Source of the DNA: Betaproteobacteria bacterium
Lineage (GTDB): Bacteria > Pseudomonadota > Gammaproteobacteria > Burkholderiales > Thiobacillaceae
Direction of reading: 5' to 3'
Assembly (NCBI GenBank): GCA_016219425.1
Contig: JACRNB010000008.1
Location: 1-39,247 of the forward strand
DNA: 39,247 bases
The notes below the pieces were generated by a model, which searched no databases, was not told the DNA's origin, and was given only the letters and a program-made list of their open reading frames with translations. The position numbers were made by a program, and so were the translations under genes. Shown piece after piece: positions 4,243-6,951 of this stretch (the stretch's first letter is position 1; each line of letters opens with the position of its first letter).

Positions 4243-6951
4243 ATGGACGCCCATTACCGCCCGGAGATCATCGAACCGGAAGCCCAGCAGCACTGGGAGG
4301 AAAAACAGGCCTACCGCGCCAGCGAAGACAGCAGCAAACCCAAGTACTACTGCCTGTCCATGTTCCCCTACCCCTCGGGCAAGCTGCACATGGGGCATGT
4401 GCGCAACTACACCATCGGCGACGTGCTGGCGCGCTACCACCGCATGAAGGGCTACAACGTCCTGCAACCCATGGGCTGGGACGCCTTCGGCCTGCCCGCC
4501 GAGAACGCCGCCCTCGCCCACAACGTCCCCCCCGCCGGCTGGACCTACGCCAACATCGACTACATGCGCGGCCAGTTGAAGCGCCTGGGCTTCGCCATCG
4601 ACTGGCAGCGCGAGGTCGCCACCTGCAAGCCGGACTACTACCGCTGGGAACAATGGCTGTTCACCCGCCTGTTCGAGAAGGGCCTGATCTACAAGAAGAT
4701 GGCCACGGTGAACTGGGATCCGGTGGACCACACCGTCCTGGCCAACGAACAGGTCATCGACGGACGCGGCTGGCGCTCCGGCGCGCTGGTTGAAAAGCGC
4801 GACATCCCCATGTACTTCTTCCGCATCACGGCTTACGCGGAGGAACTGCTCACCGAACTCGACCACCTGCCGGGCTGGCCCGAGCGGGTCAAGACCATGC
4901 AGCGCAACTGGATCGGCAAGAGCTTCGGCGTCGAGATCCACTTTCCCCTTCTCCCTTCTCCCCCCGGGAGAAGGGCCGGGGATGAGGGAGCAACGCCTCC
5001 AGACCAAGGCCCGGTCCTGAAAGTCTTCACCACCCGCGCCGACACCCTGTTCGGCGTCACCTACGTCGCCGTCGCCGCCGAGCATCCCCTGGCAACGCAG
5101 GCCGCCGCAGGCAACCCCGCCCTCGCCGCGTTCATTGCCGAATGCAAGCAGGGCAGCGTGGCCGAAGCCGACATGGCCACCATGGAAAAGAAGGGCATGG
5201 ACACGGGCCTTACGGTCCACCACCCCTTCACCAACGAACCTGTGCCGGTCTACGTCGCCAATTACGTATTGATGGGCTATGGCGAGGGTGCGGTGATGGC
5301 AGTGCCCGCTCACGACGAGCGCGACTTCGCCTTCGCCCAGAAGTACGGCCTGCCCATTCGGCCTGTCATCAAGCCGGTGGAGGGCGACCTGACCCTGCCC
5401 CTGGAGGCCGCCTACACCGAGCCCGGCATCCTGTTCGACTCCGGCGATTTCTCCGGGCGCGCATCGCAAGACGCCATCGAAAAGATCGCCCTGGTGCTGA
5501 AGAACCTGGGCCTGGGCGAGCGCCGCACCACCTTCCGCCTGCGCGACTGGGGCATCAGCCGCCAGCGCTACTGGGGCTGCCCCATCCCCATCGTCCACTG
5601 CGCCACCTGCGGCGACGTACCCGTGCCGGCGGACCAGCTCCCCGTGGTGTTGCCGGAAGACGTGAAGATGGACATCGGCTCGCCCATCAAGAAGATGCCC
5701 TCCTTCTACGAGTGCGCCTGCCCCAAGTGCGGCGGCGCGGCCCAGCGCGAGACCGACACCATGGACACCTTCGTGGAGTCCTCCTGGTACTACGCCCGCT
5801 ATGCCTGCCCGGACCTGACCACCGGCATGTTGGACGCCCGCGCCAACCACTGGCTGCCGGTGGACCAGTACATCGGCGGCATCGAACACGCCATCCTGCA
5901 CCTGCTCTACGCCCGCTTCTTCCACAAGCTGATGCGGGATGAAGGGCTGGTAAGCACGAACGAACCCTTCACCCACCTGCTCACCCAGGGCATGGTGGTG
6001 GCGGACACCTATTACCGCGACCTGGGCGAGGGCAAAAAGCAGTGGCTCAACCCGGCGGACATCGAACACACCCCCGCCGGCCCCGTACTCAAGGCCGACG
6101 GCCAGCCGGTCATCGCCGGCGGCACGGAGAAGATGTCCAAGTCCAAGAACAACGGCGTCGATCCCCAGGCCCTGATCGACCAATACGGCGCCGACACCGC
6201 GCGCCTGTTCACGATGTTCGCCGCCCCGCCCGAGCAAAGCCTGGAATGGAGCGATGCCGGGGTGGAAGGGGCCAACCGCTTCCTGCGCCGCCTGTGGAAG
6301 GCGGTCCATGAGCACGTCCAGGCGGGCGTCACTCCCCCCTTTGAAAAAGGGGGGGCGGGGGGGATTTCCGCCGCCCAGCAGGACTTCCGCCGTCAGTTGC
6401 ACCAGACCATCCAGAAGGTCACCGACGACATCGAGCGCCGCAAGCAGTTCAACACCGCCATCGCCGCCATCATGGAACTCATGAACGCCCTGGCGAAGCT
6501 GGAAGGTGAGGACTCACTGGCAAGTCGTTCGCCGGGCCGTCCCAAGAACGACTTGGCCCCCTCGGGGGGCGGCTCGGGCGGGGTTTCCGAGCCGGGGGCG
6601 CAGCGAATCCGCAGCATCAAGCAGGAAGCCCTGGAAGCCGTGGTGCTCATGCTCGCCCCCATCGTCCCCCACATCTGCCGCGTGTTGCTCAAGGCCCTCA
6701 AACCGGGCGCATGCCTGGTCGGCTCCGCCTGGCCGGTGGCTGATGCCGCCGCCCTGGTGCGGGATGAAATCGAGCTCATGCTCCAAGTGAATGGAAAACT
6801 GCGCGGCAAGCTCCTGGTGGCCGCCGATGCCGCCAGGGACGCCATCGAACAGGCCGCCCTGGCCAGCCCCGAGGCGCAGAAACACATGGAAGGCCGGCCC
6901 GCGAAGAAGGTGGTGGTAGTGCCGGGCCGGCTGGTGAACATCGTCGCGTAG
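4243..6951 (+). CDS. leuS: Leucyl-tRNA synthetase with three in-frame palindromic insertions
   Basis: A 902-residue class I aminoacyl-tRNA synthetase that charges tRNA-Leu and edits mischarged tRNA. The HIGH motif is HMGH (49-52) and the KMSKS loop is KMSKS (630-634). The CP1 editing domain contains TTRADTLFG and AVPAHDERD, and the protein ends with an anticodon-binding domain and the C-terminal FVNG-like [10 protein letters not shown] block. The start MDAHYRPE was preferred over an upstream ATG at 4156 because homology begins there. The protein exceeds the usual 860-870 residues because of three low-complexity inserts that coincide with DNA palindromes: residues about 235-258 (before the editing domain), 697-708 and 760-786 (both in the anticodon-binding region). 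The catalytic motifs are intact, so the enzyme is presumably functional. It begins a cluster with lptE and holA, an order common in proteobacteria. Confidence 0.97.
4945..4990 (+). repeat. Palindromic element A, in frame inside leuS
   Basis: A perfect 10-bp inverted repeat, CCCTTCTCCC (4953-4962) / GGGAGAAGGG (4966-4975), is followed by CCGGGGATGAGGGAG. This resembles the widespread intergenic CCCTCTCCC...GGGAGAGGG-type repeats, here read as protein ([15 protein letters not shown]). It is placed just before the conserved [13 protein letters not shown] of the editing domain, where relatives have a short linker. Confidence 0.8.
6334..6367 (+). repeat. Palindromic element B, in frame inside leuS
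   Basis: 34 bp: a CCCCCC run, TTTGAAAAA, a GGGGGGG run, C, another G run, then GATTT. It is read as [12 protein letters not shown] (residues 697-708). The same pattern occurs twice, in inverted orientation, in the intergenic block at 13930-14030, so this is a copy of a dispersed element. Confidence 0.78.
6521..6599 (+). repeat. 79-bp palindromic element C, in frame inside leuS
   Basis: It contains three successive hairpins: CAAGTCGTTC (6521-6530) / GAACGACTTG (6546-6555), GCCCCC / GGGGGC around 6556-6570, and GGCTCGG (6571-6577) / CCGAGCC (6587-6593). It matches 72 of 79 bases with 13233-13311 inside xth and is translated in the same phase there. It has no stop codon in any of the six frames. 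In LeuRS it forms residues 760-786 between conserved segments of the anticodon-binding domain. Confidence 0.9.

What the first reader, a model, noticed from the sequence alone, without database searches (positions are those of the whole stretch)
6521..6599. A 79-bp three-hairpin element inserted in frame in two unrelated essential-type genes
The segments 6521-6599 (leuS) and 13233-13311 (xth) are equal in length, match at 72 of 79 bases, keep a perfect 10-bp CAAGTCGTTC/GAACGACTTG stem, and are read in the same codon phase. Each adds 27 residues ([13 protein letters not shown]...) between segments conserved in the respective families. The element has no stop in any of the six frames. This resembles Rickettsia palindromic elements: a mobile palindrome that spreads inside protein genes without breaking them. 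Seen directly: the copies, stems and phase. Inferred: mobility and tolerance.
Basis: partly seen in the sequence, partly recalled or inferred. Interest (0 to 1): 0.85.

Follow-up and report, generated by a model that had tools for sequence, protein, structure and literature searches.

The report
Mobile hairpins inserted inside protein genes
A short hairpin-forming DNA repeat, of a kind known mainly from the gaps between genes in beta-proteobacteria, has spread into many protein genes of this bacterial genus without breaking them and is apparently translated as an extra, floppy stretch of about 28 amino acids.

Summary
In detail: 72 of 79 bases match, the 10-bp stem is perfect, six frames are open, and both copies share one codon phase. 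The own genome has 25 covariance-model matches, 16 of them strong. The leuS site is empty in all 19 genus relatives whose locus spans it, and the xth site in all 20. Two relatives carry the element elsewhere in leuS.

It has covarying hairpins and ends of about CTCT...RCAGCTAACCC. It fits best the Beta-proteobacterial Repeat Element (BRE; Hot et al. 2011), reported as mostly intergenic. By the same strict score 13 of 115 copies in named genomes read through genes, but 39 of 107 in this genus.

New: 38 merged in-gene insertions use mainly two of six frames (23 [13 protein letters not shown]..., 10 APGSGK..., 4 and 1 others; P 1.8e-12). These two are the least charged frames; the two most basic hold one insertion between them. 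This fits DNA insertion filtered by what proteins tolerate. It works like Rickettsia palindromic elements but is not shown to be one. The moving enzyme is unknown; a Y1/RAYT link was tested and not supported.

The parts
6521..6599 (+). 79-bp BRE-like core in leuS, frame S2 ([26 protein letters not shown])
6517..6610 (+). probable full unit in leuS: 4 bases left and 11 bases right of the core, by the profile of 69 copies; the left four bases (CTGG) depart from the consensus CTCT
   Evidence: inference for this copy
6521..6530 (+). hairpin 1, 5' arm (pairs with 6546-6555)
6546..6555 (+). hairpin 1, 3' arm
6556..6570 (+). hairpin 2 (GCCCCC TCG GGGGGC)
6571..6593 (+). hairpin 3 (GGCTCGG ... CCGAGCC)
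13233..13311 (+). 79-bp BRE-like core in xth, frame S2
4156..6951 (+). host gene leuS (leucyl-tRNA synthetase)
   Evidence: Pfam; PDB match
13013..13861 (+). host gene xth (exonuclease III family)
   Evidence: Pfam; PDB match

Best explanation
The element is a non-autonomous, structure-conserved DNA repeat, best filed with BRE, about 94 bp and made of three hairpins. Shown: copies sit at many unlinked places; the leuS and xth sites and those of most other in-gene copies tested are empty in relatives, so insertions are recent on the scale of species; read-through copies leave one continuous frame and usually add 84 or 87 bp. Inferred: an unknown trans-acting recombinase inserts the hairpin DNA with little regard to gene, strand or phase. 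Cells in which the insert shifts the frame, or adds a strongly basic or badly placed peptide, are lost. What remains is mostly an insert read in a nearly neutral Pro/Gly/Ser-rich frame that acts as a flexible linker and is carried vertically as a tolerated passenger.
For: Empty sites: 0 of 19 (leuS) and 0 of 20 (xth) genus relatives filled. Of 29 in-gene copies compared, leuS and xth included, 23 have 84 or 87 bp as the commonest net size (for L002 tied with 117, at 39-44% identity); the others are 81 (L016), 93 (L358), 111 (L393, a longer copy), 85-86 at a border of two Mur ligase genes (L390), and no comparison for L310 and L337. That the sizes are multiples of three follows largely from choosing read-through copies; the size itself is the result. 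Second leuS insertion in G008 and G009 with a change on both stem arms. Identical copies on contigs C6 and C11; the xth copy is 1 base from them. Covariation: 8 pairs with changes on both sides against 1.0 in shuffles; stem extension 5.8 bp against 0.76 with re-paired arms, 132 copies. Frames S0,S1,S2,A0,A1,A2 = 0,0,23,10,4,1 of 38 merged events, P 1.8e-12; strict set 0,0,19,10,4,1 of 34, P 1.2e-9. Net charge of the consensus peptide: S2 and A0 +1, S1 and A1 +4, S0 and A2 +6. Pfam finds families in 8 of 10 own and 17 of 20 relatives' read-through ORFs scanned, besides leuS and xth.
Against: No mobilising enzyme was found and no clean target-site duplication is visible. Charge alone does not explain the filter: S1 is as charged as A1 (+4) yet unused here, and 5 of the 13 read-through copies in named genomes, whose stem letters mostly differ, are in S1. 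The own genome uses S2 only (10 of 10 scored copies, plus ileS), while genus relatives use S2 16, A0 11, A1 4, A2 1 before merging; this difference is unexplained. In-gene copies show no excess of third-position changes over other copies (14/15/20 against 35/40/55, P = 1.0), so selection on the peptide after insertion is not seen. Translation of the insert has not been observed. The frame test treats events as independent.
Confidence: 0.7

Rival explanations
1. REP/RAYT system: the hairpins are mobilised by a Y1 (IS200/IS605-type) transposase encoded in the same genomes.
For: Y1_Tnp matches in 17 of 23 genus genomes, 2 in the own genome. Hairpin-borne elements without target duplication fit single-strand transposition in general (recalled).
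Against: No copy in the 30 fetched Y1 loci (of 58 Y1 matches; up to 1.5 kb each side, exact loop pattern). G020 and G021 have at least 8 copies and no Y1 match; Y1 in 10 of 12 genomes with 8 or more copies and in 7 of 11 with fewer, P = 0.37. Ends are not GTAG-tagged. Nearly half of the Y1 neighbourhoods were not looked at, and a distant gene could act in trans.
Confidence: 0.14
2. The inserts are kept because they do something: an mRNA hairpin for stability or regulation, or a useful linker in the protein.
For: The stem is kept by a compensated change in an in-gene copy (leuS of G008/G009); some insertions are shared by sister species; the Bordetella pertussis small RNA region bprJ contains a BRE (PMC3110155, abstract and section 14).
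Against: Relatives compared mostly lack the insert; no codon-position signal; the genes hit are of unrelated kinds; conserved structure is also expected of a mobile element.
Confidence: 0.1
3. The insert is not translated: it is bypassed by the ribosome or removed from the RNA.
For: Strong hairpins inside essential genes could support bypassing (recalled from phage and mitochondrial examples).
Against: The frame is open and continuous through the insert and only some frames are used; a bypassed insert would need neither.
Confidence: 0.04
4. Only chance similarity, gene conversion between two genes, or an ancient feature of the two protein families.
For: None found.
Against: 25 covariance-model matches in the genome; none of 19 and 20 relatives carries the inserts at these places; the best solved LeuRS and ExoIII chains lack the residues.
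Confidence: 0.01

Closest known systems
BRE, Beta-proteobacterial repeat element (Hot et al. 2011, BMC Genomics 12:207, PMC3110155; abstract, passages and section 14 read)
   Same: About 90 bp, high GC, Betaproteobacteria including Bordetella, Comamonadaceae and Rhodocyclaceae, tandem runs, multiple copies, some copies inside coding sequences.
   Different: The section read reports copies as usually intergenic and gives no reading frames, no covariation of hairpins and no empty sites. Here about a third of the genus copies examined read through genes, in a few frames. Letter-by-letter identity with the published alignment could not be checked (figure and coordinates only).
Rickettsia palindromic elements, RPE (Ogata et al. 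2000, 2002; the 2002 paper is not held; known here from passages of PMC10969869 and PMC3767692)
   Same: Short palindromes inserted in frame in many unrelated genes, a tRNA synthetase among them; inserts modelled in solvent-exposed places.
   Different: About 100-150 bp against about 94; Rickettsia and Wolbachia. RPE sequences were not compared.
GTAG- and CGTC-tagged REPs inside genes (PMC3733652; passages and section 15 read)
   Same: Palindromic repeats inside ORFs in several bacteria, including tRNA synthetase and DNA repair genes.
   Different: 20-40 bp units with GTAG or CGTC at one end; GTAG families often go with RAYT genes. No such tag is seen at the ends here, and no RAYT association was found.
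Enterobacterial RU repeats with ORFs inside genes (PMC2759123; abstract and outline seen)
   Same: Small repeats fused into gene reading frames.
   Different: 127, 168 and 103 bp MITE-like units of Enterobacteria.

Membership tests
BRE | Unit of about 90 bp (75-91 bp reported) | tested here: met
   79-bp core plus 4 left and 11 right conserved bases, about 94 bp, slightly over the reported range; tandem period 76-77 bp in Bordetella genomosp. 5 and 83 bp in Paucibacter.
BRE | Found in Bordetella, Comamonadaceae and Rhodocyclaceae in several copies | tested here: met
Titles are mostly Betaproteobacteria including these groups; exceptions are Pantoea sp. 18069 (2), a Hyphomicrobiales MAG, and titles that say only bacterium, Proteobacteria or Pseudomonadota.
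BRE | Tandem copies at one locus | tested here: met
   L035 two copies, L165 three, L197 four.
BRE | GC content about 69% (63.7-78.9% in Bordetella) | tested here: inconclusive
   82-bp slices: 61.0, 63.4, 64.6, 65.9% in Bordetella genomosp. 5 (L197); 67.1% in L217, L172, L178, L152; 53.7% in L179; 62-63% in L165.
BRE | Sequence match to the published Bordetella reference and alignment | not testable with these tools
   Published as coordinates and a figure; that genome was not fetched.
RPE | In-frame insertion in ORFs without breaking them | tested here: met
   44 of 125 copies examined have coding flanks in one open frame, 40 by the strict score.
RPE | Rickettsia/Wolbachia repeat sequences; R. 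conorii RPE sequences end in CGTC (PMC3733652) | tested here: not met
   Conserved ends are CTCT and RCAGCTAACCC; pattern hits are mostly beta-proteobacterial. RPE sequences themselves were not aligned.
REP with RAYT | GTAG tag at one end | tested here: not met
   No GTAG in the conserved ends.
REP with RAYT | RAYT (Y1) gene flanked by copies | tested here: not met
   0 of 30 fetched Y1 loci hold a copy; the other 28 of 58 Y1 matches were not fetched, but the second own-genome one (C4:46013) is over 200 kb from the only BLAST match on that contig.
Rfam RNA families | Match to a described family | tested here: not met
   No match on the element at the gathering threshold; best E-value 3.

The most novel reading that the evidence does not exclude
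In this clade a formerly intergenic repeat has become a protein-coding mobile element: a moving hairpin with six open frames, two of them encoding neutral flexible linkers, that together with at least two other palindrome families is remodelling loops and linkers of core proteins in an environmental bacterium, with a LeuRS editing-domain loop as a recurrent landing site.
Probability: 0.35. Interest if true: 0.82.

Novelty: new variant of a known kind. Interest (0 to 1): 0.63.

Why it matters
In-frame palindromes are best known from Rickettsia, where reduced genomes and weak selection are a ready excuse. A genus with genomes of 2.0-4.6 Mb, 23 of them at hand, and both filled and empty sites makes an old question testable: do mobile hairpins supply new protein segments, and what decides which survive? 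(Its lifestyle was not tested; isolate names point to environmental samples.) The frame statistics read out what proteins tolerate. The covarying stem with a constant loop is a handle for finding the recombinase that moves BRE, described in 2011 without a mechanism.

Tried and rejected
Rfam search: no family. Loop string in papers: 0 hits. Y1/RAYT association: not supported. Third-position bias in in-gene copies as a sign of selection on the peptide: none. Stop-freeness as proof of adaptation: weak; 52 of 72 genus and family copies are open in six frames against 15 of 128 elsewhere, but the former share ancestry and 10.1% of shuffles are open. Target-site duplication: none clear. Plasmid collection: 5 records matched only the leuS part left of the element, none the element. 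One line ('read-through in gene: genus copies vs others') was a placeholder table and is not used.

Copies left out of the 38 merged events: L005 and L006 (element at the N-terminus, no coding flank upstream), L428 (other genus) and repeats of one event (L435, L380, L404, L401, L395, L425). L009 (ileS) was added though not scored as in-gene, because its flanks are other repeats and Pfam places it inside IleRS. The codon model came from 22 long ORFs of the window and was also applied to other genera, where it is less certain. Part of the output was cut from view.

That the in-frame spread of BRE is not in print rests, in an open-access library only.

Full report
OBSERVATION. The two segments exist as described: 79 bases each, 72 identical, with a perfect 10-bp outer stem. 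Both lie in the same codon phase of the ORFs 4156-6951 (LeuRS by Pfam) and 13013-13861 (Exo_endo_phos). Neither has a stop in any of six frames. The folded strand gives three hairpins.

GENOME CENSUS. The window is part of contig 5 of a 3.10-Mb genome. BLAST with the leuS copy finds 23 matches. A covariance model from 37 copies finds 25 at E up to 0.01, 16 of them at 89 bits or more. Of 60 relatives searched with the 79 bases, 18 of 22 in the genus, 3 of 14 in other genera of the family and 0 of 24 in other families of the order have a match (few candidates were scored per genome, so copy numbers are lower bounds). With the model, 11 of 12 genus genomes drawn have matches, 48 in G017. Two copies of the own genome, on contigs C6 and C11, are identical, and the xth copy differs from them by one base.

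EMPTY SITES. In leuS, all 19 genus relatives whose locus spans the place lack the insert; in xth all 20 do. Net gains are 87 bp in leuS (17 of 23 locus comparisons; 90 in 4, 93 in 2) and 84 bp in xth (27 of 27) (several genomes appear as two loci). Two relatives, G008 and G009, carry the element at another place of leuS, net 84 bp and in the same frame, with one stem pair changed on both arms. For 29 in-gene copies in all, flanks were sought in relatives: 23 show 84 or 87 bp as the commonest value (L002 tied), and the rest are 81 (L016), 93 (L358), 111 (L393), 85-86 (L390), or not found (L310, L337). Multiples of three are expected from the choice of read-through copies. The best solved relatives lack the residues: LeuRS 6q89 goes on from residue 757 to 759 and ExoIII 2jc4 from 71 to 75.

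STRUCTURE AND ENDS. On 37 aligned genus and family copies 97.5% of the cells of 26 pairs form standard pairs, and 8 pairs show changes on both sides against 1.0 in shuffles. In 132 copies found by the constant loop in named genomes the stem outside the loop extends 5.8 bp on average, against 0.76 when arms are re-paired at random, although the arm letters differ between lineages. Over 69 copies the conserved part reaches four bases left (CTCT, 71-85% per base) and about eleven right (RCAGCTAACCC, commonest base 47-89%) of the core, so the unit is about 94 bp. In-gene copies add mostly 84 or 87 bp, so ends are trimmed or target bases lost; no clean target duplication is seen.

WHAT IT IS. The titles are mostly Betaproteobacteria: Acidovorax, Delftia, Polaromonas, Variovorax, Hydrogenophaga, Bordetella, Rhodocyclaceae and others; exceptions are Pantoea sp. 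18069, a Hyphomicrobiales MAG and titles without a class. Tandem runs occur, for example with periods of 76-77 and 83 bp. This agrees with the Beta-proteobacterial repeat element BRE of Hot et al. 2011 in length, taxa and tandem habit; the authors note as surprising that some copies lie entirely within coding sequences (PMC3110155, section 14). The published reference could not be compared. It matches no Rfam family. G020 is 'Betaproteobacteria bacterium isolate K_DeepCast_150m_m1_387' (same place in G072, the genome of L201); equal contig lengths point to isolates C17_metabat.bin.16_sub for G006 and X2_MaxBin.002 for G014.

FRAMES. I scored the flanks of 125 copies with a codon model trained on 22 window ORFs: 25 own, 82 from genus relatives and 18 from other genera of the family. 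44 of 125 have coding flanks in one frame that is open through the element, 40 of them by the strict score; in the genus 42 of 107 (39 strict). Merging shared insertions, and with the exceptions told under Tried and rejected, there are 38 events: 23 in sense frame S2 ([17 protein letters not shown]...EPGA), 10 in antisense A0 ([26 protein letters not shown]), 4 in A1, 1 in A2, none in S0 or S1. Against equal use P = 1.8e-12; for the strict set of 34 it is 1.2e-9, and the antisense frames alone depart less (P = 0.015). All 10 scored own copies are S2, and so is ileS; genus relatives use S2 16, A0 11, A1 4 and A2 1 before merging, a difference I cannot explain. Net charges of the consensus peptides are +1 for S2 and A0, +4 for S1 and A1, +6 for S0 and A2. 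In named genomes 13 of 115 scorable copies (21 more lay at edges) read through genes by the strict score; one of the 13, L248, belongs to this genus, and 5 are in S1. Of the 38 events 23 are sense and 15 antisense, which speaks for a filter on the protein rather than on transcription.

HOST GENES. Besides leuS and xth, Pfam finds families in 8 of 10 own read-through ORFs (exosortase with DUF3485, TonB receptor, methyltransferase with oxidoreductase, AMP-binding enzyme, IleRS, PAP2/PMT_2 protein, Eco57I-type methylase, ABC ATPase; none for L004 and L017). It finds families in 17 of 20 ORFs of relatives: Hda lid, radical SAM/HemN_C, topoisomerase IV/gyrase A, RNase_T exonuclease, AIRS with oxidoreductase, radical SAM/DUF3641, RNase PH domains, squalene/phytoene synthase, DFP/flavoprotein, AcrB family, RNB, histidine kinase, aminotransferase, GGDEF-EAL, glycosyltransferase, zinc-type dehydrogenase and Mur ligases; none for L340, L378 and L405. 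In L339, L357 and L398 the insert lies between two domains; in leuS, xth, L007, L016, L342, L348 and L368 it lies inside the span of one.

MECHANISM. Shown: insertion relative to relatives, an open frame, frame bias, structural covariation. Inferred: an unknown recombinase acting on the hairpin DNA; loss of cells with harmful frames; translation as a flexible passenger. Against an active function of the peptide: base changes at codon positions 1/2/3 are 14/15/20 in S2 in-gene copies and 35/40/55 in copies not scored as in-gene, P = 1.0. Against RAYT: no copy in 30 fetched of 58 Y1 loci, and copy-rich genomes without a Y1 match.

COMPARISON. It works like the Rickettsia palindromic elements (passages of PMC10969869 and PMC3767692; the 2002 paper was not held) and like intragenic REPs (PMC3733652 section 15), but the end tags and transposase association that mark these were not met. 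It is best described as BRE in a clade where BRE has moved into genes: a new variant of a known kind.

LIMITS. The picture may be larger: a loop of LeuRS carries different repeat-like inserts in several relatives, and a second palindrome family has 51 matches in the own genome.

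Noticed in passing
window 4939-5003 (leuS): Another palindromic repeat in frame in leuS ([14 protein letters not shown]); 51 matches in the own genome at E up to 0.01. The same LeuRS loop (after GVEIHFPL, before [11 protein letters not shown]) spans 33-39 bases between my anchors in 14 of 25 loci and up to 198 in others, with repeat-like inserts.
   Followed up: partly
window 6325-6372 (leuS): A third hairpin-forming, repeat-like stretch in frame ([16 protein letters not shown]); relatives have other loops of similar length there.
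   Followed up: partly
L009, about 1440-1640 (ileS, G000:C6): The 79-bp element sits inside another repeat-like stretch (PSPF...TPPPGGEGD) within IleRS: apparently nested in-frame repeats.
   Followed up: no
G000:C5:42636-42712 and C5:43281-43359: One PAP2/PMT_2 protein carries two BRE subfamilies in the same frame (RNSPGRPKSFLPLEG... and SRSPSRSKNELAP...).
   Followed up: partly
L390 (G022:C15:124323-124401): A copy at the border of two Mur ligase genes, net 85-86 bp, leaves one open frame that runs from a Mur_ligase_C domain through the element into the next Mur ligase; in the two relatives compared the two parts are not in one frame.
   Followed up: partly
L042, L185, L196: Copies with an extra hairpin-rich piece of roughly 50 bases in the second hairpin.
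   Followed up: no
L008 and L010: The element lies beside or inside a GTCGGGTTACGGC... repeat, whose TAACCC end resembles the element's own right end.
   Followed up: no
L261-L263, L265-L270 (viral contigs): 9 of 10 viral contigs with the loop have it in the same sequence context; in the three read, it lies just upstream of one ORF (MSPPRIDVHLLTLDE...), which gives no Pfam match in the one scanned.
   Followed up: partly
window 4156-4242: The LeuRS start is probably the Met at residue 30 (4243): the best solved relative and many genus relatives align only from about there.
   Followed up: no
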